A stretch of 27,331 nt of DNA from Xenorhabdus eapokensis (lineage in GTDB: Bacteria; Pseudomonadota; Gammaproteobacteria; Enterobacterales; Enterobacteriaceae). Positions 1,712 to 27,331 of the stretch are shown piece after piece. Each line of letters begins with the position of its first letter. Position 1 is the stretch's first letter. Made by a program: the position numbers and the translations under genes. Location: contig NZ_MKGQ01000036.1 of the NCBI RefSeq assembly GCF_001908105.1, positions 1-27,331 of the forward strand, given 5' to 3'. The notes beneath the pieces are model-generated. The model saw only the letters and a list, made by a program, of their open reading frames with translations, searched no databases and was not told where the DNA came from.

Positions 1712-1943
1712 AATTTTAGATACCTCTAGCCAGTCATATTATTGTTATGGTGTGTGAGATATCCCGCTAATAACGTGTAACGTGTTTACTCCCTGTTTTG
1801 ATTATTCGGGATATAAAAAATAACCTTATTCACCTTATTTAATAGTCTGCTAACAGTATCCATATATTGTTTAAATGAAATATATATGATTATGAATATA
1901 GTGATGAGGGGGACTCTATATCCGCCTGCTGCACGCTTTATCC

Positions 1944-1981
1944 AATCACTGCATAAATCACAATGACATGACAAATCATGT
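1944..1981. promoter_or_regulatory. Candidate AraC operator (repeats upstream of the iorA promoter)
   Basis: The pentamer AATCA occurs three times in direct orientation at 1944, 1956 and 1974 (AATCAC in the first two). A perfect dyad ACATGA-caaa-TCATGT occupies 1966-1981 and abuts the candidate -35 box at 1983. AraC-family activators usually bind direct repeats overlapping or just upstream of -35, so the placement fits. The rest of the divergent gap (1712-1943) is AT-rich with no clear gene. Binding by this particular regulator is inference. Confidence 0.35.
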
Positions 1982-1982
1982 A

Positions 1983-2011
1983 TTGACCGTTAACCCATAC
2001 CCGAATTAGAT
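1983..2011 (+). promoter_or_regulatory. Candidate sigma-70 promoter of the iorA operon
   Basis: TTGACC at 1983-1988 (5/6 to the -35 consensus) is followed after 17 bp by TTAGAT at 2006-2011, a poor -10. A good -35 with a weak -10 is compatible with an activated promoter. The predicted transcript would start near 2018 and carry GTGAGGTAAGC as ribosome site before the ATG at 2042. Confidence 0.35.
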
Positions 2012-2041
2012 AAAAGATAACTTAAAGCGTGTGAGGTAAGC

Positions 2042-6267: not shown

Positions 6268-8628
6268 ATGAATGTAAGAGGTAAGAGTGCAGTAATCAGT
6301 AAAAATACCGTGGCCATCAGTGGCAAGAATATCGTCTGTATTGGCGGCGGACCGGCTGGGTTATATTTCGGCCTGCTGATGAAATTACAAAATCCTGATA
6401 ATCGTGTTGTGGTGATCGAGCGCAATCGTCCGTATGACACCTTTGGTTGGGGAGTGGTGTTTTCGGATGCAACGTTGGAAAACCTGCATCTGGCCGATCC
6501 TGTGTCGGCGGAAATAATCAGGAAGGAGTTTAGCCGTTGGGATGATATCGATATCCATTTCAAGGGAACCGTCAATCGTAGTGGTGGTCATGGATTTATT
6601 GGTATTGGCCGTAAAAAACTCCTGAATATCTTGCAAGACCGTTGCCACGAAGTCGGGGTTGAGTTGCTGTTTGAAACCCAGATTGAGGATGAACAGGAGA
6701 TTGCCCACAAATATCATGCTGATTTGCTGATTGCCTCTGATGGGATCAATAGTCAGATCCGTACCCGTTATGCTGAATTTTTCCAGCCCGATATCGATCA
6801 ACGCCATTGCCGTTTTGTCTGGTTAGGAACGCATAAAGTTTTTGATGCATTTACGTTTCTGTTTGTTGAAACCGAATATGGCTGGTTTCAGGTTCACGCC
6901 TATCAATTTCAGGAAGGGCTATCGACTTTTATTGTCGAAACGACGGAAGAGACCTGGCTGGCTGCGGGTATCGACAAAATGTCACAGGAAGAGGGCATTG
7001 CCTATTGTGAAAAAATATTCGCCCCCTGGCTGGATGGACATAAATTAATCTCCAATGCCACCCATTTGCGCGGTGCCGCCATCTGGATACGTTTTCCCCG
7101 AATAATTTGTGCCAATTGGGTGCACTGGATCAAACCAGAGGGAGAGAACGGCAAAAATATCCCGATTGTATTAATGGGAGATGCCGCCCATACCGCCCAT
7201 TTTTCCATTGGTTCCGGTACAAAATTGGCACTGGAAGATGCGATTGAACTGGCAAACAACCTGAAAACCCATCAAGGGAATTGGCAGGCGGGTTTATCCG
7301 ATTATCAGCAATCGCGCAGCGTAGAAGTGCTGAAAATCCAGAATGCCGCGCGTAATTCAACGGAATGGTTCGAAAATGTTGCACGCTATGAAAGTTTTTC
7401 GCCTGAACAATTCGCTTATTCATTGCTGACTCGTTCACAGCGTATTTCCCATGAAAATTTGCGCTTGAGGGATCGGGCATGGCTGGAAAATTATGAGTGC
7501 TGGTTTGCGCAAAAATCGCCCCCGCCCTCATCGCTGCCCCCACCGTTGCTGACCCCTTATCAGGTACGGGGCGTGAGCTTGAAAAATCGGGTGGTGGTCT
7601 CTCCTACGCTGTTGTATAGCGCTGTGGAAGGCGTTCCGGATTCATTCCATCTGGTTCATCTTGGTAGCAGGGCATTGGGTGGCGTGGGTTTGGTGATCGC
7701 GGAAATGACGGCCATTTTTCCACAAGCACGTGTCACTCCTGCTTGTACGGGATTGTGGAACGATCAGCAGGTGCAGGCGTGGAAGGCGATCACTGATTTT
7801 GTCCACCAGCACTCTGACACTCGGATAGGCATTCAACTGGGACATGCGGGAAGGCGGGGATCAACCCAACTGGGGTGGCAACAAGCTGATCACCCTTTGC
7901 CAGAGGGTAACTGGCCCTTAGTTTCAGCATCCGCCTTGCCCTATTTGGCTGGAATTTCACAAGTACCAGCGGCGCTCACTAAAGCGCAAATGGCCGAAAT
8001 TATTGAGCAGTTTATTGCCGCAACTCACCGTGCCATCAAAGCAGGGTTTGACTGGCTGGAGATTCAGGCCGCACACGGTTATCTGCTCTCCAGTTTTATC
8101 TCTCCGTTGACTAACCAGCGCGATGACGAATATGGCGGTTCGCTGGAAAACCGGCTTCGCTTCCCGTTGGCCGTCTTTAAGGCGGTGCGTGATGTTTGGC
8201 CGGCGAATTTGCCGATATCTGTGCGTATTTCGGCTACGGATTGGGTTGCGGGGGGAACGACAGTTGACGAAGCCGTAGAGATTGCCCGTCGTTTCCGTGC
8301 AGCCGGAGTAGATATGGTGGATTGTTCCACCGGAGAAGTTTCCCCTGAACAGCAGCCGGTTTATGGACGTATGTACCAGACGCCGATGGCTGATCGCATT
8401 CGTAATGAAGGCAACGTGCCGGTTATTGCAGTTGGTGCAATTACGGATGCGGATCAAATTAACGGCATTATCGCTTCGGGTCGTGCTGATCTCTGTGCCT
8501 TATCCCGCCCATTCTTATCTGATGCGGCCTGGTTACTGCATGAATGTGCCAGATATGGCTGGACGGGTATCGATTGGCCGGAACCTTATCTTTACGGCAA
8601 AGCGCAATTGATTAGAAAACAACGCTAG
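6268..8628 (+). CDS. FAD aroyl-CoA 5-monooxygenase / old-yellow-enzyme fusion (salicylyl-CoA 5-hydroxylase or 2-aminobenzoyl-CoA monooxygenase-reductase type)
   Basis: A 786-residue two-domain flavoprotein. Residues ~20-400 are a class A FAD monooxygenase: [17 protein letters not shown] (Rossmann fingerprint at 26-31), [13 protein letters not shown], and [20 protein letters not shown] near 304, the second FAD motif. From ~425 to the end is an FMN old-yellow-enzyme barrel ([21 protein letters not shown], the [13 protein letters not shown] active-site strand near 602, [13 protein letters not shown]). This fusion is known from 2-aminobenzoyl-CoA monooxygenase/reductase and from proteins named bifunctional salicylyl-CoA 5-hydroxylase/oxidoreductase. 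It would add a hydroxyl at ring C5 of an ortho-substituted benzoyl-CoA. The sequence alone does not choose between an ortho-OH and an ortho-NH2 substrate. There is a ~20-residue N-terminal extension before the Rossmann strand; CAGGAG supports this start. Confidence 0.87.
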
Positions 8629-8637
8629 GAGATATCC

Positions 8638-9777
8638 ATGTCTCAACAAGAAAATATCCAAACTCATGATCAATATCGGGAAGATATTCTCGGCCGTGCC
8701 AATGTTGCCGATAGCCCTGAACTGCTGGCGTATTACAGGGAGTTGGTTAAATACAAGACAGGGGCACTCTGGACAATCGCCAATAAAATAGAACCCTGGC
8801 AACCTAAATCCGCTTCAGTGCCGGTACTTTGGCGTTACCGTGATCTGCGTGAGTACGTTCTAAAATCGGCCGATTTAGTCACACCGGAAAAAGCAGGCCG
8901 CCGTGTGGTCTATCTGAACAATTCGGGAGAGCCTGGAGCCTCCACCGCTGTTGGCTTGCTCTATTCCGGTCTCCAGACAATGCGGCCAGGTGAAGCGGCA
9001 TCGGCACATGCCCACTCCTCTTCTGCTTTGCGTTTCATCATGGAAGGGCGTGGTGCTTACACCATTGTTGATGGTCAGAAAATGTCGTTGGGAGCGAATG
9101 ATTTCGTCTTAACCCCCAATGGCACCTGGCATGAGCACGGTGTTGATCCTGATGGCTCGCAATGTATCTGGCAGGATGGTCTGGATATACCGCTGGTTAA
9201 CATATTGGAGGCGGGTTTTTATAAGGTACATCCTGATTTGCGTCAGGCGGTGACTGAAGCCGTGGATTCTTCCATTGCACTTTGGGGTGCCCCTGCTTTG
9301 CGTCCACAGAATGTTGGCTGGGATAAACCTTATTCCCCGCTGTTCAGATACCAATGGGAGCCAACTTATGAAGCCTTGCAGCGTTACGCTCATGTGTCAG
9401 CAGGATCGCCTTTTGATGACATTTTGATGCACTACTCCAATCCGCTAACAGGCGGCCATGTGATGCCGACTCTCGGCGCCAGTATGCAGTTGTTGCACCC
9501 TGGTTTTGTTGGCAAGGCACATCGGCACACTGGCAGTTTCATCTATCAAGTGGCGAAAGGAAAAGGGTATTCCGTGATTGATGGTCAACGATTTGACTGG
9601 CAAGAGCGGGATATTTTCTGCGTACCTTCGTGGGCATTTCATGAACATGTGAATAACTCACAGACCGATGATGCTTGCCTGTTCTGTTTCAATGACTTGC
9701 CTGTCATGCAGGCATTGCAATTGTATTACGAAGAGGCCCTGTCTGATAACAATGGGCACCAACCAGTGAGAGGATAA
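8638..9777 (+). CDS. Gentisate 1,2-dioxygenase-like bicupin ring-cleavage dioxygenase
   Basis: A 379-residue bicupin. The N-terminal cupin carries H124-A-H126 in HAHSSSALRFIMEGRGAY and H165 in GTWHEHG, the expected Fe(II) ligands. The C-terminal cupin has HRHTGSFIYQVAKGKGYS and FHEHVN. Length and layout match gentisate 1,2-dioxygenase, which opens gentisate between C1 and C2 to maleylpyruvate. 5-Hydroxyanthranilate dioxygenases belong to the same fold and are not separable by eye. It starts 10 bp after the hydroxylase stop, with AGGAGATATCC before the ATG, and ends 3 bp before the hydrolase gene. Confidence 0.88.
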   Translation: MSQQENIQTHDQYREDILGRANVADSPELLAYYRELVKYKTGALWTIANKIEPWQPKSASVPVLWRYRDLREYVLKSADLVTPEKAGRRVVYLNNSGEPGASTAVGLLYSGLQTMRPGEAASAHAHSSSALRFIMEGRGAYTIVDGQKMSLGANDFVLTPNGTWHEHGVDPDGSQCIWQDGLDIPLVNILEAGFYKVHPDLRQAVTEAVDSSIALWGAPALRPQNVGWDKPYSPLFRYQWEPTYEALQRYAHVSAGSPFDDILMHYSNPLTGGHVMPTLGASMQLLHPGFVGKAHRHTGSFIYQVAKGKGYSVIDGQRFDWQERDIFCVPSWAFHEHVNNSQTDDACLFCFNDLPVMQALQLYYEEALSDNNGHQPVRG

Positions 9778-16297: not shown

Positions 16298-16814
16298 CGG
16301 TTTATCCCCGTGCTTACGGGGAACACTAGGTGGTTTAAATCCAGATTTTAAATCCACTCGGTTTATCCCCGTGCTTACGGGGAACACTCGGAGTAGACAA
16401 ACAGCGGTTTACCGTGATGCGGTTTATCCCCGTGCTTACGGGGAACACTCACGATAGCCGTAATATCCTAAACCTGGGTCTGGTTTATCCCCGTGCTTAC
16501 GGGGAACACCCCATGGGCACGAGCACGATTAACATCAATACCGGTTTATCCCCGTGCTTACGGGGAACACAAAGGAAACGATTACCGCCTGATAGTTTCT
16601 ATCGGTTTATCCCCGTGCTTACGGGGAACACTTCACCCTTAACACAATTCCGGGTAAAGAATTCGGTTTATCCCCGTGCTTACGGGGAACACATTGGGCT
16701 ACAGCATTAGCAATTGGAGCTGATCGGTTTATCCCCGTGCTTACGGGGAACACCCACCACAGAAAGGGTAAAAATTAACATATACCGGTTTATCCCCGTG
16801 CTTACGGGGAACAC
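16298..16814 (-). CRISPR. Type I-E CRISPR array, 9 repeats and 8 spacers
   Basis: Nine 29-bp repeats start at 16298, 16359, 16420, 16481, 16542, 16603, 16664, 16725 and 16786, with eight 32-bp spacers (period 61). The plus strand reads CGGTTTATCCCCGTG then CTTACGGGGAACAC. The functional crRNA orientation is the minus strand, where the repeat has the hairpin CCCCGT-AAGC-ACGGGG and the 8-nt handle ATAAACCG, the Cas6e product. The leader is therefore at the right, beside cas2, and the newest spacer is 16754-16785. All repeats are identical except the one at 16481, whose first plus-strand base is T. All spacers differ and none obviously matches this window. The small size and uniform repeats suggest a young or rarely growing array. 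Confidence 0.97.
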
Positions 16815-16895: not shown

Positions 16896-18111
<1,216 letters not shown>

Positions 18112-18112
<1 letters not shown>

Positions 18113-18786
18113 TACAGCGCCCTGATCAGCATTAGCCCACAACCAAAGGATTTTGCCCTGCCAAACCCTTTTTGGTATTGCTCAAGGAAAAGTTCGCTAT
18201 CTGACAAAGTGAGCACACCCTGAAAATCCACGCTGGAAAATGCCACTTTCTGACCAGAAGCTTTGAAGCTGCGATGTTGGGTATAGCGTTCAATATCTGG
18301 GGCGAAGTCAAAGCGAATTCCCCAATTAGCCAGCCGTTTTTCATCCTGTATCCAGGCTTGGGCGGCTTGCGTCATTACTGATTCGATTTCGTCTGAGCGA
18401 CCAGCATGTCTTGCCTGACGTTTGGCATGCATCAATACGTCATGGCGAAGCTGTTTGCCTGAATCTTTATTTGTAATGCAGACAGTGGGGTTCGCGCGGA
18501 GTTTAAACGCCAGTTTTTGACCATTATATAATTGAGGGATAAAAGGTTTGGTCTGAATCTGGAAGCGCGGGGAATTGGCTATTGGTGTCGTTGTGGACAA
18601 CACAAAAAATTCAGGTCTGCCACTTAAGCTCATCTCTTGCCTGAACAAGAAATTGCGCTCTTCCTGCTCGGTAAACAGTTGCCACAAGAGTTGGTGGGAA
18701 GCATAGACATCATTTTTCGTCTGTTTTCGTGACGGTGCTTGTATATGATAAACCGAAGGGCGCAAAGTAACTTTAGACAGATACAT
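18112..18786 (-). CDS. casE: Cas6e (CasE) crRNA endonuclease
   Basis: A 224-residue protein starting at the ATG at 18786, which has an excellent ribosome site (GGAGGGAACTC) and the family start MYLSKVTLRPS. The frame is open to 18861, but those residues overlap casD and are not Cas6e-like. H31 in YASHQLLWQLF aligns with the catalytic His of E. coli CasE. The C-terminal glycine-rich loop GFGRAKSFGCGL is the RNA-binding signature. It cuts the repeat at the base of the CCCCGT/ACGGGG hairpin and stays bound in Cascade. It overlaps casD by 14 bp. Confidence 0.95.
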
Positions 18787-19531
18787 GAGTTCCCTCCACG
18801 GTCGATAACTGGTGCATTGTGCGTTGCGTAAACTGCCAGTGGCTGCGTGATAGCGGTTCATCCCAACCTTGATGAGTCAGTGTTGTCGTATCAGGGAGTG
18901 TGATCTCGTCTTTATCTCCTTCCCAGAAATAGCTCACGACATCGTGATTACGCTGCCAGTAGTGATTGGCCTTTTCTGATTGATGAGGTAAGGGAGGAAA
19001 AGGCGTATCAAGGGCTGCTTTTAATGACGGATATTCTGCCAATTGCGGCATCATCGGAAGCGCAAGAGGGCAGGATTTTCGCCCAAGGCTCAGTGTAAAG
19101 ACCGGTTTTATCAGCGCATCACGCAAAGCCGAAAGTGTGAAACTGGCCTGTTCGGTCAATGAAATTGTGATAACCCATACACCATCAGCAAGGTAATCGC
19201 GTGAAGACAGCACTGTGTTTAATTTGGATTTATCGCGCAACTCACTTTTACGGGTCAGATGTGCCTGTTTTTTCTCTTGTGAGGGAACTTGGGTAGTATG
19301 GTAATCCCGCATTAATAAACCGGAAACAATCTGTTTGATGGCGATTTTGATACCCTGCTGCAATGCCACAAGTTGTGTTTCATCGTCACGCCGGATACCC
19401 AATGCTGCACCTAATAGCCCTAAGATAGCCGAGCGGGTTGGATCAGTGCCGGTCGGCCGATCTTCGCCGACCGCCTCCACCCCCCAACTGGCTAGTGCTC
19501 CATATAAACGAAAGACCAGGTAAGTCTGCAT
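18773..19531 (-). CDS. casD: Cas5e (CasD) Cascade subunit
   Basis: A 252-residue protein. The N-terminus MQTYLVFRLYGALASWG and the segment DRPTGTDPTRSAILGLLGAA are diagnostic of Cas5e, which grips the 5-prime handle of the crRNA and caps the Cas7 filament. Length is normal. It starts 11 bp after the casC stop and runs into casE with a 14-bp overlap. Confidence 0.95.
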   Translation of the reverse strand: MQTYLVFRLYGALASWGVEAVGEDRPTGTDPTRSAILGLLGAALGIRRDDETQLVALQQGIKIAIKQIVSGLLMRDYHTTQVPSQEKKQAHLTRKSELRDKSKLNTVLSSRDYLADGVWVITISLTEQASFTLSALRDALIKPVFTLSLGRKSCPLALPMMPQLAEYPSLKAALDTPFPPLPHQSEKANHYWQRNHDVVSYFWEGDKDEITLPDTTTLTHQGWDEPLSRSHWQFTQRTMHQLSTVEGTHVSV

Positions 19532-19542
19532 ATTGGCCTCTT

Positions 19543-20580
19543 TTATTCAGTAACGAATTGAAGTAGCTCAGTAAAACGACCTTCACCCGTGACGGCATTG
19601 ATTTCATAGAGCGTGTCAGCGCAAGCGCCATAAACGTTATCGAAGTTTTTCCTCTGATTTTCTAACGCGTTGATGGCATCAGTTGCCTGATCTTCGCTAT
19701 CAATGGGTTTTAAAAACGCAACAGACAGGGAACGAGGCTGATATTCTCCCTTTTCCGCCAATACATAGCTGGCATAAGCGCGGGAGCCGAAACTGTTTTG
19801 TTTGCCGGATGGGGCGATTTTAATAGCGGCTTCTGTCAGGGCAGCGATGGCTTTATTCGCCAGTGCTTCATTGCCAGACAGATTTTCGATTAACAAAGAT
19901 TTGTTGATGCAGATATAGCTGTAGAACAGCGCGGCGGCAAAGCCGGTTTCGCCAATATGAGCCGAACCGGAATCACTTTTGCCCGCATTGAGATCGTCTA
20001 CCGCGGTAAAATAGTCATCTTCTACGGCAACACGGTGAACACTGATAGCATGGGCAACCTGACAGGCTGCTTCCACACTATGGGCAGGGCTGGATGCCAG
20101 CATTCGGCCAAACAGGGCAATATCTACGGCTGTTTTTTCTCTGCTCAGTAGGTTCAATTCTGCTTTGGTGGGTGCGCGATTTTCGGCGATGAGTTTATCG
20201 GCCAATGCAAAGGTAGCCTCTTTTTCTGCCGGGCTGATATGAGCCAATTGTTCAATTTCCAGAGGTTCATCTTTTTTATTTTTGCCAAAAACCTCTGCAA
20301 TAACAGTAGCCCATTGAGTGGCTTGTTTTTCTTTAACTCCCCCATTAAGTAAGCGTTGATAAACCTGAAATCCAAAGCGCTTGGTACGAAAACCAAGGTG
20401 CTCTGCGAGAGCATCCTGAAACAGTTCAGAGATTCGCCAGTGGCGTTTCAAACTTTGAGAGCTAATTCTTAATCTCTCAGCCCCGCCCATTCTGGCAGTT
20501 TTAGGACGTCCGAGATCATCGCGATTCAGGTTGGCAGGAGGATAGGAAGTCAACAGATGTAGCTGAATAAATTGGCTCAT
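19543..20580 (-). CDS. casC: Cas7e (CasC) Cascade backbone subunit
   Basis: A 345-residue protein. The start MSQFIQLHLLTSYPPANLNR followed by DDLGRPKTA and RLRISSQSLKRHWR is the Cas7e signature. Six copies normally coat the crRNA spacer, and every sixth spacer base is flipped out of pairing. AAGGA precedes the ATG, and a 40-bp gap separates it from casB, the widest in the operon. Length fits the family (~350). Confidence 0.95.
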   Translation of the reverse strand: MSQFIQLHLLTSYPPANLNRDDLGRPKTARMGGAERLRISSQSLKRHWRISELFQDALAEHLGFRTKRFGFQVYQRLLNGGVKEKQATQWATVIAEVFGKNKKDEPLEIEQLAHISPAEKEATFALADKLIAENRAPTKAELNLLSREKTAVDIALFGRMLASSPAHSVEAACQVAHAISVHRVAVEDDYFTAVDDLNAGKSDSGSAHIGETGFAAALFYSYICINKSLLIENLSGNEALANKAIAALTEAAIKIAPSGKQNSFGSRAYASYVLAEKGEYQPRSLSVAFLKPIDSEDQATDAINALENQRKNFDNVYGACADTLYEINAVTGEGRFTELLQFVTE

Positions 20581-20620
20581 TTAAAATTCCTTATAGAGTA
20601 AAGATGATGAATTATTGGGG

Positions 20621-21172
20621 TTATTTAGCGGCTTTGTAGTAATCCATTGCCCATTGCACACAAAGGCGTTTATTGGCTCGATACGCTCTTGGCTGGTGGT
20701 ATTCCCACATCCACTGTTCAATATCTTTGGCGAGAGACAAGACGGAAACCTGGCCTTTCAGTTGTTGCAGGATGCGCCGCAAACGCATAATAAATTCATC
20801 GGGAGTTTTGGCTGCCTGTAATTGGGCAAAGCGATGAGTACTGACAATGGGCTTGTCATTTTCTGTTTTGGTGCCTGCGGCAGTTGCCAGATTAGTGCTG
20901 GTGTTGGTTTTGACATACACCAGCGTAACGGCAATCATCGCCCATTGCATAACGGTTTTTTGTTCAGCTTCTTTGGTGATATCCTCAGGTAAAATGAACC
21001 ATAATGCGCGAAAACCTTCGGTTAAAGTTACTGCCTCAATATCCTGGCAACGCTTTAATTCGGCCTTATAGAGTGTGGGTACAGGAGGAATCTCTTTTTT
21101 CTTCAATTCTTCGGGGGATAAAAACATACTTTCCCACCAGCGCAGTAAACGACCTTCGCTTAGATTAGTCAT
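20621..21172 (-). CDS. casB: Cse2 (CasB) Cascade small subunit
   Basis: A 183-residue basic, helical protein of the Cse2 family. The segment GRLLRWWESMFLSPEELKK and the C-terminal VSVLSLAKDIEQWMWEYHQP fit; E. coli CasB is ~160 residues. It stabilises the crRNA-target hybrid and displaced strand. It overlaps the end of casA by 8 bp. Confidence 0.93.
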   Translation of the reverse strand: MTNLSEGRLLRWWESMFLSPEELKKKEIPPVPTLYKAELKRCQDIEAVTLTEGFRALWFILPEDITKEAEQKTVMQWAMIAVTLVYVKTNTSTNLATAAGTKTENDKPIVSTHRFAQLQAAKTPDEFIMRLRRILQQLKGQVSVLSLAKDIEQWMWEYHQPRAYRANKRLCVQWAMDYYKAAK

Positions 21173-22781
21173 TGATAACCTCCTTCTTCGTGTTCTTGGA
21201 TGATTTGGTTTCTATATTGTGCTCTGCCATAAATGACTTAATATCTTTAGAACTTATCAGCCACTTGGTAAGAATTTGCCGTGCCTCGATTTTTTCCAGT
21301 AATTTTTTGGGATCGGTATCTTCTGACAGTACAAATTCATCAAAGAGATCAAAGCAGGTATTTCTAAGTTGATAGAGCCAGGTTTTAGCGTCTTCGGTGG
21401 ATAGGGAAGACGCTTTATGCTGGCTGCTGACAATCTGTTGTACCGCCTTAAAAAAGGCAGCTTGGGTACGTTGGTAGAAGGTCGCCTCAATAAATGACAT
21501 ATCGCCTTTTATCTCATTCGGGCGACGGAACCAGGCGCTTTTGATCTGGGTACGACACTGAGTCAATGCATTGGCAGAGAGGTTTTGTAATGTTTTGACG
21601 CGCCGGAAAACAGCATCTTTCTTCTCAATCGGCATGGAGAATAGAGGCAGGCTGGTGGAGTACCAACCGCGGGCTTTCATGTTATCCATATCATAGCCAA
21701 AAACCCACAACCGTGGAGTGGAACTCTGTTCGTCCGCAAAATAATCATTGAGTTGGTTAAAATGGTCGACAACCTGAGCTGCCTGTTGACCATATTTATC
21801 ATTGGAAAACGTCAGGCTATCCCAGGTTTTGTAGGTAATGCCACCCGGCTGCCCTTTGACAGAAATGTGCACTTCATCCGGTTTTTTGGGATTCCATCGA
21901 TAGGGTGTTAAGGGATGTTGCCAAGTACCAGAATAGTTGTTGCCATAGTTTTGGGTACGATAGCCAGCAACAGATTGGTGAGTTGCTTGTCCCGTTAATT
22001 GGCAAATAGCGGGCTTGTCATCTATCTCCAGACGAATTCGCCGTGGCATTGCCCAATACATATGCAGTTCATGGACATTATGTGCGTAAATTTCTGTCTC
22101 TGCTTTTTGGCCGAGATGAGTTTTACCCAGCCACGGAAAAACGTCTGGACTATTGAGGTCAGGATCCGGGTAAGACCAAAGTTCCCGATTGATGACATTA
22201 AGCCAAAGTTTTTGCCATAGTGAAGCATCCAATTCTTGTGGCTGAATCAAGGTTGTTAGTGGGCCTCCTCCCCGCAACCCCACTCGATGCCCGACACCGC
22301 CGGCAGGAGCATTAATCTGTAATGTGAATAGCGCGATAGCGGCCATTTCAGGGGAAATGACTTCACATTGGTTGCGTTTGATAAAGTGGTCAGTATTATC
22401 CTTCAACGTTTTTTCACCGGGCGATTCAATCAATAATCCTGAAATGCTGGTGGGCTTTCTTTCAGCTAATAGATCAAAATCCTGCATAAACAGAGGGCCA
22501 TCCCCTGACAAATTAAAAGCCTGTTCTGCCTGGTTAAAGGCAGTCTGTAAGTCAGCTTGTGTAGGGGCTTGTTGATAAAATTCATGCCATTCGTCTTCAT
22601 CTTCAGGGGCAAAAACCGTTTGTAGCAAGCCAATGGCTAACTGATAAGCCGCCCCCTGAAAATCAGCTCGCGGCAGGGCAAAATCGACGACGGCAGGATC
22701 ACTGATTGCCGTCAGTGGCAATTTTTTCTCGCTGCCATTTCTCATGCTAAAAGTCAGCCATGCATCTTTAACGAGGTTCAT
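21165..22781 (-). CDS. casA: Cas8e/Cse1 (CasA) Cascade large subunit
   Basis: A 538-residue protein, slightly longer than E. coli CasA (502). MNLVKDAWLTFSMRNG, LPRADFQGAAYQLAIGLLQT, GDGPLFMQDFDLL and GLRGGGPLTTLI are conserved Cse1 blocks. The subunit reads the PAM and recruits Cas3. Its ATG overlaps the cas3 stop by 1 nt (TAATG), so the two are translationally coupled. That differs from E. coli, where cas3 and casA are separated by a regulated gap. Confidence 0.95.
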   Translation of the reverse strand: MNLVKDAWLTFSMRNGSEKKLPLTAISDPAVVDFALPRADFQGAAYQLAIGLLQTVFAPEDEDEWHEFYQQAPTQADLQTAFNQAEQAFNLSGDGPLFMQDFDLLAERKPTSISGLLIESPGEKTLKDNTDHFIKRNQCEVISPEMAAIALFTLQINAPAGGVGHRVGLRGGGPLTTLIQPQELDASLWQKLWLNVINRELWSYPDPDLNSPDVFPWLGKTHLGQKAETEIYAHNVHELHMYWAMPRRIRLEIDDKPAICQLTGQATHQSVAGYRTQNYGNNYSGTWQHPLTPYRWNPKKPDEVHISVKGQPGGITYKTWDSLTFSNDKYGQQAAQVVDHFNQLNDYFADEQSSTPRLWVFGYDMDNMKARGWYSTSLPLFSMPIEKKDAVFRRVKTLQNLSANALTQCRTQIKSAWFRRPNEIKGDMSFIEATFYQRTQAAFFKAVQQIVSSQHKASSLSTEDAKTWLYQLRNTCFDLFDEFVLSEDTDPKKLLEKIEARQILTKWLISSKDIKSFMAEHNIETKSSKNTKKEVIND

Positions 22782-25531
22782 TACGCCTCCTGCTTAGGAT
22801 AAAAACCGATGTTGGGATCATAAGTAAAATGAGGGTCACTCTCTGGTAGCCAGATTTGCAGGTATTTGACGGATTTGAATTTATCCTGTAACTGTTCTAC
22901 TGCTTGAGAAAGAGACTCTGGTATGGGTTGCAGCTTATCGGCAAATTTATTTTTTGAAATTTTGACGATACTTAATTGGACAGGAAATTTTTCATCCTCT
23001 ACCCACGGTATCAATTCACCGCTTTCGGTCAGTTTGACAAGCAGCACACTGACCGTTTCGATATCACTAAATCGGGTACTGATATCGCAATCATCGTCAT
23101 ACCAACCGCGGGCACTGCGTTTACTATATTCATGGTGTTGCCATTGCAGGGCTTGTGATCGTGCTATGGCGTCTTTGTACCTCCCTTCAGTGATTGCGTC
23201 ACCATCTTTGTATTTGAGTGCATCAGGGATTTGTTCATCAGCGTCTTCACCGTAAACGGCTTCGATCAAGGTTCGAGCCTCAGCAGGCATACGAATGGCA
23301 CCCAAGCGCAGGAGTTCGCGTAAGCCAAGCCATAAACGTCCGGCTGAACGATAAACATATTGAGTATTACGGAACTCTTTACTCAGCCAATCCGTTTTAG
23401 GTTGGTCATCCCATTCTGGTGCGTGAAGATATAATGTAGGCGCAGATCGGCTATCGGTAATGCCTGCTTTATATTCGCCATTTGTATTGCGGGTATGGCG
23501 GTGCAGGCGACCGACCCGCTGAATCAAGTCATCAATCGGGCAGATATCGGAGATCATCACATCAGTATCAGCATCAAGACTTTCCTGAAAGACCTGCGTT
23601 GTAATCAGGATCTTTCCTTGTCGATCTTTCTGCCTACTCTCTTTACCAAATATTGCCAGCACCCGATCTTCGAGCATTTTGCGGTCATACAAAATAAAGC
23701 GGCTGTGGAATAGCAGGCAATTTTCCGGCTGTTCCATTTGTGCCTGAATCAGTCGGAAAGCATGGAGTACATCATCCACTGAGTTACGAACCCAAACCAC
23801 ACATTGCCCATTTTGAGCGGCGTTCAGAGCGATTTCTACACATTCATCCAGATGATTCACGGTTTTTACCGTGACGGCACGGCTAACATCTGGGCGACTG
23901 CGTAAGGGCGTTTCAATAAGCGGATTTTCTGGGTTTAATGTGATATGGGTTGCCAGTGGAAAGGCCGTTTGTTGCAATTTTTGTGGCGAGATTCCGCCGG
24001 CAGATAGCCAGTTATCTACCAGCCGTTGGCGCTGTTTTAAAGAGAGCGTGGCAGTCAGCAATACCACGGAACCCCCCTGGTGCAGGTGCAGACTTAATAA
24101 GTTTTTCAGTAATGCAAACATGTATTCATCTGCGGCGTGTACTTCGTCGAAGATCAATACTTTGCGATTTAATCCAATCAATCGAAGTGACTGGTATTTT
24201 CTCGGTAAAATGGCAAGCAATGCCTGATCGATAGTACCTACGCCCACCGAAGCCAATAGGGCTTTTTTGTTAGAATCTGCCAGCCATTGGTGGCACTGTG
24301 CTGTCGCGGTGCTATCGTCTCTGGTGTAATCACTGTCGCTGTGTTCGGACGTCAGGATGATGTCACGGAAATTGTCATTCATCTCACGGGCACCGTGCGC
24401 GAGAACGATACTGGGCAGGTTGCCGTTTTCTGTATCAAACATATGATGATAGTGTTTGGCGATTCGGCCAAACATGGCGTTGGAAGTCGCCATTGTTGGC
24501 AGACCAAAATAGAAACCGTCCGCAGTACCGGTTTGCATTAAGCGGTGAGTCAGGGCAAGGGCGGCTTCTGTTTTGCCTGCTCCCGTGACATCTTCCAGAA
24601 TAAAAAGTTGTGGGGAGTCATCAATCGGGACTTCCTCCGCCCATTTTTGTAATGGGGTTGGCGAAAAGTGGTAATACTCCTGAATAGAGGTGTAAGGCGA
24701 TATTACGGGGGGGTTATGGAGATCAATGCCATTCAAGGCAACTTGGGCTTGTTTTTGGGTAAGCTGCCAATATTCTGCTAGAGGAAGCGCTTTGGTTTGA
24801 TAACGAAAATGATAACAGTCAGAGCCTATCCAGTCAGCCAGTACGACAATACCGGCAAGTTGCCAACTCACCTGTTTCAGGTTGTGTTGCCACTCTTTTG
24901 AAAGTAATTTTGCCAGTGGCAGACGAGGTTGAAAAAGCGTCAGTAGATCATGGGTAAATGCCGTTGCATCGACAACATTTTGGGGCTCAGTAAAATCGGT
25001 AATTGCGTTACAATCAGTATCATCAATGGGTTTACCATGATGACCGAGCATACACTGCATCAAAATCATTAACGTTTTTAGTGCTCGTTTCTTTTGTTTA
25101 TCTTCATTGAATGGCAGGCCATCATCTTCCACTAAAGCAAACAGTACGTCGTCCTGAATTTTTTTCCAGAAAAATAGCCCTAACCGATCATGCCTGAAAC
25201 ATTTGGAATCATAGGGGGAATATTGTTCAGGGTTAATCAGATCAGTATTTTCCTGGGAATATAATTGCTGAAATGCAGAGGCAAACTTACCGATATCATG
25301 CAGTACCAGAAAAAATGAAAACAGATTTTGTAGTGATTCTGGTGATAATCCCAAAAAGTTGGCGAGATCTTGTGTTAATTTTTTGTGTGGTGCCAATAAT
25401 AATCGACCTACTGCGGCAACATCCAGGCAGTGATAGGCCAGAAGATGATAGTTTTCTTCGGAATAGGGATTTTTTTTGGCTTTGCCCCAATATCCCGTGA
25501 GGTAACCAAAATTATTTATTAAGTTAGGCAT
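22781..25531 (-). CDS. cas3: Cas3 nuclease-helicase (type I-E)
   Basis: A 916-residue protein, normal size. The N-terminal HD nuclease shows H34 (YHCLDVAAV), H78-D79 (LVLHDIGKFASAFQ), and further His in FRHDRLGLF and GHHGKP. The SF2 helicase follows: Walker A VTGAGKTEAA near residue 313, DEVHA near 460, VVLLTATLS, and motif VI QRVGRLHRH. It degrades DNA bound by Cascade. No clear Shine-Dalgarno lies before the ATG at 25531, but no better start exists and MPNLINNFGYLTGYWGKAKK aligns with the normal N-terminus. It is the first gene of an apparently unbroken cas operon. Confidence 0.96.
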   Translation of the reverse strand: MPNLINNFGYLTGYWGKAKKNPYSEENYHLLAYHCLDVAAVGRLLLAPHKKLTQDLANFLGLSPESLQNLFSFFLVLHDIGKFASAFQQLYSQENTDLINPEQYSPYDSKCFRHDRLGLFFWKKIQDDVLFALVEDDGLPFNEDKQKKRALKTLMILMQCMLGHHGKPIDDTDCNAITDFTEPQNVVDATAFTHDLLTLFQPRLPLAKLLSKEWQHNLKQVSWQLAGIVVLADWIGSDCYHFRYQTKALPLAEYWQLTQKQAQVALNGIDLHNPPVISPYTSIQEYYHFSPTPLQKWAEEVPIDDSPQLFILEDVTGAGKTEAALALTHRLMQTGTADGFYFGLPTMATSNAMFGRIAKHYHHMFDTENGNLPSIVLAHGAREMNDNFRDIILTSEHSDSDYTRDDSTATAQCHQWLADSNKKALLASVGVGTIDQALLAILPRKYQSLRLIGLNRKVLIFDEVHAADEYMFALLKNLLSLHLHQGGSVVLLTATLSLKQRQRLVDNWLSAGGISPQKLQQTAFPLATHITLNPENPLIETPLRSRPDVSRAVTVKTVNHLDECVEIALNAAQNGQCVVWVRNSVDDVLHAFRLIQAQMEQPENCLLFHSRFILYDRKMLEDRVLAIFGKESRQKDRQGKILITTQVFQESLDADTDVMISDICPIDDLIQRVGRLHRHTRNTNGEYKAGITDSRSAPTLYLHAPEWDDQPKTDWLSKEFRNTQYVYRSAGRLWLGLRELLRLGAIRMPAEARTLIEAVYGEDADEQIPDALKYKDGDAITEGRYKDAIARSQALQWQHHEYSKRSARGWYDDDCDISTRFSDIETVSVLLVKLTESGELIPWVEDEKFPVQLSIVKISKNKFADKLQPIPESLSQAVEQLQDKFKSVKYLQIWLPESDPHFTYDPNIGFYPKQEA

Positions 25532-25584: not shown

Positions 25585-26022
25585 TTATTCTTGGTGTTCT
25601 ATATATTGGCTAAATCGAAGTAAATAACCATCTGGATCTTGAACAAGGAATTCTCTCTGACAGACATGGGTATCGCCTATGCAGTAATAATTATCTTCCA
25701 GTGGACGATAAAGTTCGATGTTGTTAGTTACAAGATTTGCCAGAATTGGCTTAATGTCATCAACTTCAATTTGCAAATTAATACCGCGTCCTAATGGTTT
25801 ATTGAGTTCTCCGGTATTCCAACCATTTTCATGAAATGCTTCCAGCATTAATTGTGCCTCACCTAAGCCCAAATAAACAAAATCGGGTTCTTCTCGTCGG
25901 ATTAATATTTTGAAACCCAATGTTTTCTGATAGAAATCGAGTGAAGCAGAAAAATTGCTCACAGTAAGCTCTGGCACCATGCGATTCCAGTAAGTTTTTT
26001 CTGTTACATTATTAGCGCTCAA
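25585..26022 (-). CDS. VOC-family (glyoxalase/bleomycin-resistance-like) protein
   Basis: A 145-residue protein of two beta-alpha-beta-beta-beta modules: MVPELTVSNFSASLDFYQKTLGFKI in the first and VQDPDGYLLRFSQYIEHQE closing the second, with GINLQIEVDDI between. It resembles bleomycin-resistance-like VOC proteins, which bind or modify small molecules; the substrate is unknown. The start is probably TTG at 26022, because AGGAAA lies about 7 nt upstream and no in-frame ATG comes before residue 15. It reads in the same direction as the cas operon and ends 53 bp before cas3. Confidence 0.8.
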   Translation of the reverse strand: MSANNVTEKTYWNRMVPELTVSNFSASLDFYQKTLGFKILIRREEPDFVYLGLGEAQLMLEAFHENGWNTGELNKPLGRGINLQIEVDDIKPILANLVTNNIELYRPLEDNYYCIGDTHVCQREFLVQDPDGYLLRFSQYIEHQE

Positions 26023-26223: not shown

Positions 26224-26485
26224 TTAGATTTTGATGACAGTTTTTATGGTGAATTGTAATACTCCGTGAGTATTTTTCTCTGATAGTGTTTTATCTCTAT
26301 ATATCAGCGTTTGTTCATTTTGTAGGTGCTGCATTTTTGTTTGCGTCATAGCTTCTTTGCGCCATCTAAACAGGGTGCTTTTAGAGATTCCATCTGATTT
26401 GGCCAGAGAGGAAATACTGATGTTGTAGGGCGGTAGCATTTTTTTTTTGCATGGCTCGTTTTTTTTCAGGTGAATAACGTTTCAA
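26224..26485 (-). pseudogene. Decayed transposase orfA (HTH, IS3-type) with frameshift
   Basis: From a TTG at 26485, preceded by GGGGAC, the minus strand reads MKRYSPEKKRAM and then meets an A10 tract. The continuation MLPPYNISISSLAKSDGISK, then STLFRWRKEA, lies in another frame. Together they make the N-terminal helix-turn-helix of an IS3-type orfA transposase; nine As instead of ten would restore one frame. After RWRKEA (about 26350) the sequence is no longer transposase-like and the frame stops at 26224. The zero frame gives a 34-residue peptide ending at 26381. It is an IS remnant; any present role would be as the unit downstream of the putative crRNA-like target at 26560-26595. Confidence 0.7.
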
Positions 26486-26559
26486 ATTTTGTCCCCTATG
26501 AGAATTTTTATGTGGAATGTTTTAAAAGTGTAGAGGGAGTTTGTGGAAAGGCAAATTTT

Positions 26560-26595
26560 TTTTCAATTTTCAGATAGAGTAAAAAACAAAAACTT
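26560..26595 (-). promoter_or_regulatory. Putative target site of the mini-CRISPR spacer (PAM AAG plus protospacer)
   Basis: On the minus strand AAG (26595-26593) is followed from 26592 by TTTTTGTTTTTTACTC and so on. Against the mini-array spacer, positions 1-5, 7-11, 15-17 and 19-23 are identical, 18 of the first 23. Mismatches at 6, 12 and 18 fall on bases that Cascade flips out. AAG is the canonical I-E PAM. A weak -10-like GATAAT lies just upstream at 26612-26607 on the same strand. The distal ten positions mostly mismatch, which would favour binding without Cas3 cleavage. Targeting is inferred. Confidence 0.5.
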
Positions 26596-26641: not shown

Positions 26642-26732
26642 ATATTTATCCCCGTGTATACGGGGAACATAATTTTATAATCAGAGAGAAGTAAAAATAA
26701 AAACGGTTTATTCCCGTATTCACGGGAAAAAG
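26642..26732 (-). CRISPR. Degenerate two-repeat mini-CRISPR / crRNA-like RNA (CreA- or CreR-like)
   Basis: Two diverged copies of the array repeat flank one 33-bp spacer (26671-26703). The copy at 26704-26732 (upstream in RNA sense) matches the consensus at 22 of 29 positions, and the copy at 26642-26670 at 23 of 29. Every change leaves the 6-bp hairpin intact: differences sit in the loop, in the ends, or, in the upstream copy, change the outermost C-G pair to T-A on both sides. The upstream copy keeps the 8-nt handle ATAAACCG; the downstream copy has lost it but keeps its stem. Cas6e could release a ~62-nt crRNA (26711 to 26650). It lies about 1.1 kb upstream of cas3, outside the main array. 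Confidence 0.7.
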
Positions 26733-26972: not shown

Positions 26973-27230
26973 ATGACTGTTGTTGTTATTCGCCAATCTG
27001 GTGGGGCTAATATTGTTAGCGTACCGAAAGCCATTTTGAAAGCCCTTAATCTACATACGGGTTCAAAGCTTGATCTGTCCATTCAAAATAACAAAATTGT
27101 GCTTACACCAATCGAAGAAGAGTTAACGTTGGAATTACTGTTAGCCGGAAGCCCTAAAGAATGTTTCACGGTAACAGATGAGGATAGAGAATGGATCAAT
27201 GCTAACCCTGTTGGTAAGGAAGTGATTTGA
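26973..27230 (+). CDS. MazE/PemI-like (AbrB-fold) antitoxin, toxin not seen
   Basis: An 85-residue protein. The N-terminal ~48 residues form a swapped-hairpin AbrB DNA-binding domain (RQSGGANIVSVPKAILKALN, then GSKLDLSIQ, KIVLTPI). The C-terminus (LELLLAGSPKECFTVTDEDR, then EWINANPVGKEVI) is the toxin-wrapping tail of MazE/PemI antitoxins. GGGGAG stands 8 nt before the ATG, and TATAAT at 26945-26950 is a candidate -10. Such genes normally overlap a PemK/MazF toxin start; here the bases after the stop read ATG-TAA, giving no toxin frame in the remaining 100 bp. The tail is intact, unlike the Phd gene at the other end, so the toxin may have been lost or displaced by the element at 27273. Confidence 0.8.
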   Translation: MTVVVIRQSGGANIVSVPKAILKALNLHTGSKLDLSIQNNKIVLTPIEEELTLELLLAGSPKECFTVTDEDREWINANPVGKEVI

Positions 27231-27272
27231 TGTAAATAAGCTTTCAAAATAGTAGATCACTTGGAGGGAACT

Positions 27273-27331
27273 CAGTCCAATTTTTGCGATCTGATTAATC
27301 GCCAAATCAAAAAAAATCCCAAAATGGACTG
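27273..27331. repeat. Inverted repeat CAGTCCA...TGGACTG at the window edge
   Basis: CAGTCCA (27273-27279) and TGGACTG (27325-27331) are perfect inverted copies 45 bp apart, with an inner inverted pair GCGAT...ATCGC (about 27286-27302). It may be an IS end, a MITE or a hairpin following the antitoxin gene. The window ends exactly here, so the true extent is unknown. Confidence 0.35.

What the first reader, a model, noticed from the sequence alone, without database searches (positions are those of the whole stretch)
26642..26732. Degenerate mini-CRISPR with structure-preserving divergence: a likely regulatory crRNA (CreA/CreR-like) upstream of a type I-E cas operon
Both repeats have drifted 20-25% from the array repeat, yet all changes avoid the Cas6e hairpin. 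Plus-strand positions 9 and 24 of the copy at 26704 changed together from C-G to T-A, a compensatory swap. Only the copy that supplies the 5-prime handle keeps the handle ATAAACCG; the copy that supplies only the 3-prime hairpin has lost it (ATAAATAT). A dead array relic would not decay in this asymmetric way. Established knowledge: degenerate-repeat crRNA-like RNAs (CreA of CreTA toxin-antitoxin modules, and CreR cas-autorepressor RNAs) use Cascade to repress promoters. That this copy works so is inference.
Basis: partly seen in the sequence, partly recalled or inferred. Interest (0 to 1): 0.9.

Follow-up and report, generated by a model that had tools for sequence, protein, structure and literature searches.

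The report
Mini-CRISPR guide silencing neighbouring HTH gene
A two-repeat mini-CRISPR beside the immune genes of a Xenorhabdus bacterium most likely makes a guide RNA that steers the CRISPR complex onto the promoter of a small neighbouring DNA-binding gene, and a phage contig of a related species seems to carry copies of the same guide.

Summary
The mini-CRISPR is real (minus strand: R1 26732-26704, 33-nt spacer, R2 26670-26642), 1.1 kb upstream of cas3 of a complete type I-E locus. Eleven other Xenorhabdus genomes have it. Its spacer is conserved and its target can be named: a protospacer about 50 nt downstream (PAM AAG 26595-26593, protospacer 26592-26561) at the promoter of a small gene for a transposase-derived helix-turn-helix (HTH) protein.

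Guide and target change together: none of 200,000 permutations and none of 2,000 column-permuted controls reached the observed pairing. Over 11 pairs, positions 1-22 match 177/209 outside multiples of six; positions 6, 12, 18 match 5/33; positions 23-32 match 31/110. That is type I-E Cascade geometry with partial pairing. Two species found later fitted the prediction, one with PAM AAA.

So it is a CreA-like guide; cas autorepression (CreR) is not supported. The repressed protein gene recalls CrePA, but toxicity is untested, and in this window the HTH frame is broken at an A10 run.

Unexpected: a phage contig of X. khoisanae, and an island in another species, carry guide copies matching their hosts' HTH promoters 15/15. 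No expression data were available.

The parts
26704..26732 (-). R1, first degenerate repeat; would supply the 5' handle ATAAACCG
   Evidence: stem kept by compensation across 12 R1 sequences
26671..26703 (-). Guide (33-nt spacer), conserved in 12 Xenorhabdus genomes
26642..26670 (-). R2, second degenerate repeat; would supply the 3' hairpin, handle lost
26593..26595 (-). PAM AAG of the target
26561..26592 (-). Protospacer; 22 of 32 match in all, 13 of 15 at positions 1-17 without 6 and 12
26549..26554 (-). Putative -35 (TTGCCT) of the HTH gene
   Evidence: chosen by position shared with relatives, tied for best score; the generic scan lists no promoter here
26527..26532 (-). Putative -10 (TACACT) of the HTH gene
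26224..26485 (-). Small HTH gene (PF01527 family in relatives), TTG start 26485; reading frame broken at the A10 run 26448-26439, the shifted frame ends at stop 26226-26224
25585..26022 (-). VOC/glyoxalase-like gene between the HTH gene and cas3 (context; also present in relatives without a cas match beside it)
16896..25531 (-). Type I-E cas operon, cas3 to cas2, the presumed Cascade and Cas6e source
16298..16814 (-). Ordinary nine-repeat CRISPR array with the reference repeat

Best explanation
The unit is a CreA-like guide gene of a type I-E system. Read on the minus strand, it would be cut by Cas6e into a ~62-nt crRNA-like RNA, loaded into Cascade and led to the AAG protospacer at the promoter of the small HTH gene next door. 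Pairing is limited to about positions 1-22 with every sixth base unpaired: enough to bind but, by analogy with known CreA, too little for Cas3 cleavage, so the HTH promoter is held off while Cascade works. Shown here: anatomy, conservation, guide-target covariation, Cascade-type spacing of mismatches, promoter position. Inferred: transcription, processing, binding, repression. The HTH protein most likely acts as a CreP/CreT-like guard that harms the cell when Cascade fails (my estimate about 0.5). In this window its frame is broken, so the module may be half-decayed here. The confidence given is for guided repression of the HTH promoter as the evolved function of this unit in the genus, not for toxicity.
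For: Same top site in 9 of 10 loci searched with each species' own guide, with a score that favours known PAMs. Unselected interval test on 12 species: own-pair sum 157 against permuted mean 132.3, 0 of 200,000 permutations as high. Column-permuted guides, which keep relatedness and composition: 0 of 2,000 as high. Two later species fit. Mismatches at positions 6, 12, 18 and beyond 22. Target tied to the HTH start codon (94-109 nt) while its distance from R2 varies from 49 to 252 nt. In X. poinarii the target pattern with up to 2 mismatches occurs once in the genome. HTH proteins intact in 8 genomes show pS 0.53 against pN 0.22. Published I-E precedent in Citrobacter rodentium, where the target overlaps the UP element of a toxin promoter (PMC12055562, passages).
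Against: No expression data. The HTH frame is broken in the window, X. thuongxuanensis and X. bovienii T228; in the last the target is decayed too. The X. khoisanae site has PAM AAA. In X. lircayensis the best unselected match is an overlapping site with PAM TTC, and in X. beddingii the own guide is not the best-scoring pair of its row or column margin clearly (11 of 15). No clear promoter boxes in X. nematophila and X. poinarii. Guide and target are both T-rich and the species are related; the controls address this, but reversed and distal guide controls still show small excesses (0.70 and 0.63 against 2.46).
Confidence: 0.85

Rival explanations
1. The guide does repress the HTH gene, but the HTH protein is a regulator (for example an activator of cas genes or of another defence), not a toxin. 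The pair would be a Cascade-dosage feedback loop, and phage copies of the guide would act as RNA anti-CRISPRs by repression.
For: The protein has a DNA-binding fold (PF01527; helical model). The gene lies upstream of cas3 on the same strand. It is often broken while cas genes stay.
Against: No conserved binding site was looked for or found at the cas3 promoter. By published precedent, guide-repressed genes in cas loci include protein toxins (CrePA in PMC12737573 section 10; C. rodentium in PMC12055562).
Confidence: 0.35
2. CreR-like autoregulation: the guide represses the cas operon, either at the cas3 promoter or through read-through from the HTH promoter.
For: The cas3 upstream region of the window has a partial match (8 consecutive bases, PAM ATA). 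HTH, VOC and cas3 are on one strand.
Against: In the relatives the cas3 promoter is never among the top sites by score with a known strong PAM and full seed (X. thuongxuanensis lists weak matches near it). The cas3 upstream motif stays in species without the guide, such as X. yunnanensis. The target moves with the HTH start codon.
Confidence: 0.08
3. A dead relic of an ordinary array whose last two repeats and spacer persist by chance and common descent.
For: R2 looks like a degenerate terminal repeat. In X. thuongxuanensis R1 is the last repeat of a long array. A paper on X. griffiniae treats similar one-spacer loci as apparent remnants (PMC11566119, passages). The HTH frame is broken in the window.
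Against: Guide and target covary with mismatches at positions 6, 12, 18 and beyond 22. R1 stems are kept by compensation. Where target and HTH N-terminus are missing (G006, G011, G044) the last spacer is unrelated.
Confidence: 0.05

Closest known systems
CrePA: CreP protein toxin, typically with a KilA-N domain, repressed by a crRNA-like CreA (known to me through review PMC12737573, section 10; primary paper not read)
   Same: CreA-like guide and Cascade predicted to repress the promoter of a small protein gene with a DNA-binding domain inside the cas locus
   Different: The protein here is a transposase-type HTH of 83-116 aa, with no KilA-N match in the Pfam scan. Toxicity untested.
CreTA of Citrobacter rodentium, type I-E (PMC12055562, passages)
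   Same: Type I-E; guide-target partial pairing beside a small translated ORF in the cas locus; target overlaps the promoter's upstream part; canonical PAM
   Different: There one repeat-like unit on the opposite strand, a 96-bp ORF between cas3 and casA and PAM ATG; here two repeats on the same strand, a longer HTH gene upstream of cas3 and PAM AAG
CreTA of haloarchaea and Acinetobacter (PMC9458426, passages; PMC8501985 and PMC10097628, abstract openings in listings)
   Same: Minimal two-repeat CRISPR with degenerate repeats guiding Cascade to a neighbouring promoter
   Different: There the toxin is an RNA; here a protein under purifying selection
CreR cas-autorepressor RNA (PMC12737573, passages)
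   Same: Degenerate-repeat guide near cas genes
   Different: CreR targets the cas promoter; here the target is the HTH promoter
Racr, phage RNA anti-CRISPRs (PMC10651486, passages)
   Same: The X. khoisanae phage contig carries repeat mimics
   Different: Racrs are described as solitary repeat units; these have spacers that match the host's HTH promoter
NilD CRISPR RNA of X. nematophila (title seen in reference lists; content recalled)
   Same: A single-spacer Xenorhabdus CRISPR RNA that needs Cas6e but not Cas3, with unknown target (recalled)
   Different: Identity not testable here: besides the cas-linked unit the X. nematophila genome searched has two other isolated two-repeat loci

Membership tests
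CreA-type guide (antitoxin RNA of CreTA/CrePA) | Degenerate repeat or repeats around a short spacer, outside the array, near cas genes | tested here: met
CreA-type guide (antitoxin RNA of CreTA/CrePA) | Partial complementarity, with PAM, to the promoter of an adjacent gene | tested here: met
   PAM AAG in 10 of 11 scored pairs, AAA in X. khoisanae
CreA-type guide (antitoxin RNA of CreTA/CrePA) | Transcribed, cut by Cas6, loaded in Cascade | not testable with these tools
   stem kept; no RNA data
CreA-type guide (antitoxin RNA of CreTA/CrePA) | Represses the adjacent gene through Cascade without Cas3 cleavage | not testable with these tools
   pairing limited to about positions 1-22 is compatible
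CrePA | Repressed gene codes for a protein | tested here: met
   8 intact ORFs, mean pS 0.53 against pN 0.22 over 46 codons; frame broken in the window
CrePA | KilA-N domain in the toxin (described as typical) | tested here: not met
   Pfam scan of 6 proteins gives PF01527 HTH above its cut-off, no KilA-N listed (for two proteins only the best 25 families shown)
CrePA / CreTA | Repressed gene is toxic when Cascade is lost | not testable with these tools
   HTH locus seen only in cas8e-positive genomes (11 of 21 against 0 of 9), but the genes are physically linked
CreR | Guide targets the promoter of its own cas operon | tested here: not met
   the top site is the HTH promoter in 9 of 10 loci
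NilD RNA | Sequence identity with the published NilD locus | not tested
   paper not held
Racr (for the phage copies) | Solitary repeat without spacer function that inhibits Cas complex formation | tested here: inconclusive
   phage units have guide-like spacers; inhibition not testable

The most novel reading that the evidence does not exclude
A Xenorhabdus phage, and probably other mobile DNA, carries its own copies of the host's guard guide, tuned to the HTH promoter of its host (15/15 at positions 1-17 without 6 and 12 in two species, better than the host's own guide at those sites). They would keep the guarded HTH gene silent while filling Cascade with guides that do not target the phage: an RNA counter-move against a CRISPR-guarded gene.
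Probability: 0.4. Interest if true: 0.92.

Novelty: new variant of a known kind. Interest (0 to 1): 0.78.

Why it matters
It gives a genus-wide, covariation-backed example of a natural type I-E Cascade guide with a named DNA target, and it puts a domesticated transposase HTH protein in the place of the guarded gene. The every-sixth-base pattern is a record in genomes of how Cascade pairs. The phage copies suggest an arms race over the guard itself, not only over immunity. If one of these units is NilD, it would offer a testable target for an RNA linked to nematode colonisation (recalled).

Tried and rejected
Target at the cas3 promoter: plausible by eye in the window but not a top site in the relatives. 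Target upstream of the MazE-like gene or in the guide's own upstream region: partial matches only (10 of 12 scored positions at best), and much of that stretch is missing in X. vietnamensis and X. anantnagensis. Naming the unit NilD: not decidable here. Phage records: no blastn match to a 1,601-base piece of the X. khoisanae phage cluster. HTH family in viral contigs: 1 weak relative among 306 matching stretches. One of two viral-contig hits to a guide pattern (L110) shows no repeat around it. Of the hits I looked at by eye, those in G003 C9, G003 C34, G004 and G007 show no repeat pair and G018's is an array spacer; the other hits were judged only from their letters and places. G024's unit does not exceed shuffles (1242 of 5000). 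HTH matches in G008 and G017 away from the cas locus are a fragment in IS-like DNA and a transposase-like sequence (by eye); the G008 cas contig is only 5,201 bases, so the unit cannot be looked for there. The generic promoter scan lists nothing at the module. No fold search was run on the HTH model.

Full report
Observation. The window holds a complete type I-E cas operon on the minus strand (16896-25531; eight of eight genes recognised) and an ordinary nine-repeat array. At 26642-26732, 1.1 kb upstream of cas3 and on the same strand, lie two degenerate repeats around a 33-nt spacer. The statement that changes avoid the hairpin is not, because R1 has two stem changes, which compensate each other.

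Relatives. The window's own genome is not held. A search of 41 genomes, 25 of them of one genus, found orthologous regions; protein and record names identify Xenorhabdus. Nine relatives showed the two-repeat unit at once and two more, X. beddingii and X. khoisanae, later: 12 with the window. Their spacers are recognisably one guide, around TTRTTATTTTCACTTTTATTG, with X. nematophila and X. poinarii most diverged. R1 stems: 12 sequences, 11 distinct, 98.7% of cells paired, 4 cells with double changes, 0 of 500 shuffles as high; but pairs with a double change (88/500) and further pair types (324/500) are not unusual. The R2 stem is nearly invariant in 11 sequences (X. thuongxuanensis left out because its R2 has an inserted base). 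The full handle is in 8 of 12 R1 and 0 of 11 R2.

Target. For the window and nine relatives I ranked every position of the available cas-locus DNA (about 16 kb each; 27 kb for the window; two short contigs for Xenorhabdus sp. IM139775) against the species' own guide, with a score that adds weight for known PAMs and for an unbroken seed. The top site was the same in 9 of 10: AAG followed by a match running to about position 22, just upstream of a small gene. X. bovienii T228, whose copy of that gene is broken, had no such site. A first permutation on nine pairs gave P about 5e-6, but those targets had been picked by match. I repeated it without picking: the best score of each guide over each species' whole R2-to-gene interval, 12 species, PAM ignored. 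The own-pair sum was 157 against a permuted mean of 132.3; none of 200,000 permutations was as high. The own interval was the best or tied best in 11 of 12 rows and 10 of 12 columns. Relatedness could inflate this, so all guides were permuted by column in the same way: 0 of 2,000 reached the observed excess of 2.46 (control mean 0.09, maximum 0.98). The reversed guide and the distal guide half still gave 0.70 and 0.63. X. beddingii and X. khoisanae, examined after the hypothesis, fitted it: beddingii matches positions 1-12 but only 11 of the 15 scored positions; khoisanae has an unusual CG at positions 9-10 in guide and target, with PAM AAA. In X. poinarii a target pattern of 17 specified bases, up to 2 mismatches, occurs once in 3.7 Mb, at the site; the reversed control pattern occurs 4 times.

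Pairing pattern. Over 11 pairs (X. bovienii left out), matches at positions 1-22 other than multiples of six are 177 of 209; at 6, 12 and 18 they are 5 of 33; at 23-32 they are 31 of 110. Bases flipped out at every sixth position are the known geometry of type I-E Cascade (recalled). The stop near position 22 fits binding without Cas3 licensing (inference). X. lircayensis is scored at its AAG site, although its best unselected match is an overlapping site with PAM TTC.

Target gene. The target starts 94-109 nt before the start codon of a small ORF in 11 of 11 species, while its distance from R2 ranges from 49 to 252 nt, so it is tied to that gene's promoter. A -35/-10 pair at a shared position can be picked in nine species, not always as the best-scoring candidate: the -35 starts at protospacer position 38-39 in five and 26-28 in four, about one helical turn apart; none is clear in X. 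nematophila and X. poinarii, and the generic scan lists none in the window. Six proteins of 83-116 aa score above the cut-off of the transposase-type HTH PF01527. A search of 5.8 billion proteins, limited to relatives sharing short words, gave 18 hits: 13 named Xenorhabdus, 5 without a name. A model of the X. poinarii protein shows three short helices and one long one (mean pLDDT 88.5, pTM 0.48). Eight intact genes give mean pS 0.53 and pN 0.22 over 46 codons. The frame is broken in the window (A10 run), X. thuongxuanensis and X. bovienii T228.

Distribution. Of 30 Xenorhabdus genomes 21 have a cas8e match, one of them in pieces (G024) and one over two contigs (G022). HTH matches occur in 21 of 30, but by place and strength I count 11 as the locus gene (G001, G003, G014, G015, G019-G023, G042, G046), all cas8e-positive (chance 0.006; the genes are physically linked, so this is weak). 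The guide was found in the same 11. G006, G011 and G044 keep only the C-terminal part of the HTH gene, and their last array spacer is unrelated. The other matches, including 4 of the 9 genomes without cas8e, are weaker, elsewhere and transposase-like; of these I looked at G008 and G017 only, and X. koppenhoeferi (G008) cannot be judged because its cas contig ends.

Copies outside cas loci. A genus-wide search for handle plus seed (up to 3 mismatches, blind to the diverged guides of X. nematophila and X. poinarii) found guide-like units elsewhere. In X. khoisanae an 81,973-base contig, listed in IMG/VR, with a portal protein (E 5e-185) and a tail-fibre match, carries eight different guide-like spacers between strongly altered repeats. 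Six of the eight resemble a host guide better than all of 5,000 shuffles, two do not (81 and 196 of 5,000). One matches the host guide 28/32 and the host HTH target 15/15, at the AAA site where the host guide scores 14/15; another matches a second site 14/15, PAM AAT, which 118 of 20,000 shuffles also reach. Xenorhabdus sp. IM139775 has a unit on a contig next to metabolic genes, with a Cse1 fragment nearby (mobile origin is inferred); its guide matches the distal AAG site of the HTH promoter 15/15, where the host guide scores 12/15. Shuffled guides reach the two 15/15 matches in 0 and 1 of 20,000. X. yunnanensis, which has no HTH module, has two units (0 and 3 of 5,000 shuffles) on a contig with lysis-like genes (by eye). 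A DUF1456-like ORF lies beside the X. khoisanae unit (Pfam 22.2 bits, below the cut-off of 27) and, by eye, beside the other two.

Literature. Seen: passages of PMC12055562, PMC9458426, PMC10651486, PMC11566119 and PMC12737573 (section 10 whole); of PMC8501985 two reference-list passages and the abstract opening; of PMC10097628 the abstract opening. PMC11566119 describes one-spacer loci with a degenerate right repeat in X. griffiniae as apparent remnants. Listings (top 7-30 rows each) showed no paper on such a module in Xenorhabdus. Shmakov 2023 and Veesenmeyer 2014 are not held and Shu 2024 was not looked up, so absence from print is not claimed.

Verdict. A CreA-like guide with a newly named target: it works, on this evidence, like known CRISPR-guided promoter repression, and is a new variant in the gene it controls. 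Repression itself, and toxicity of the HTH protein, are inference.

Noticed in passing
L099 6919-7774 (minus), L098 about 8600-8690 (minus), L105 about 1930-2030 (minus): Guide-like mini-CRISPR units outside cas loci: on a phage contig of X. khoisanae, on an island of Xenorhabdus sp. IM139775 and on a phage-like contig of X. yunnanensis, each with a DUF1456-like ORF nearby.
   Followed up: partly
window 26448-26439: An A10 run breaks the HTH reading frame; X. griffiniae BMMCB has nine A there and an open frame. Decay, sequencing error or slippage are all possible.
   Followed up: no
L038, about 100-230 nt after R2 (cas3 -1100 to -1000): X. anantnagensis has three tandem AAG-TTATT target sites upstream of the HTH gene, about 30 nt apart.
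   Followed up: partly
11 guide-target pairs, positions 6 and 12: Guide and target match at positions 6 and 12 in only 1 of 11 pairs each, although a match there should be neutral; the guide mostly has A at both. Unexplained.
   Followed up: no
HTH promoters of nine species: The -35 lies at two distances from the target, about one helical turn apart (positions 38-39 or 26-28).
   Followed up: no
window 26973-27331: A MazE-like antitoxin gene (PF04014) without a listed MazF partner; the last 100 bases resemble plasmid DNA, one record annotated as an IS30 family transposase.
   Followed up: no
G014 C2 881840-881923 and 3320126-3320209 (L094, L095): Two other isolated two-repeat, one-spacer loci in the X. 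nematophila genome, one beside an IS66-like ORF and one among phage-like genes (by eye); either could be NilD.
   Followed up: partly
G014 C2 3589394-3590270: A further array with a different repeat core (GTCTCCGTAGG...) about 10 kb from the cas-linked unit.
   Followed up: no
L003: G016 keeps the start of cas3 (about 20 codons) and its upstream motif, but no cas8e match exists in the genome: a scar of a lost cas locus.
   Followed up: no
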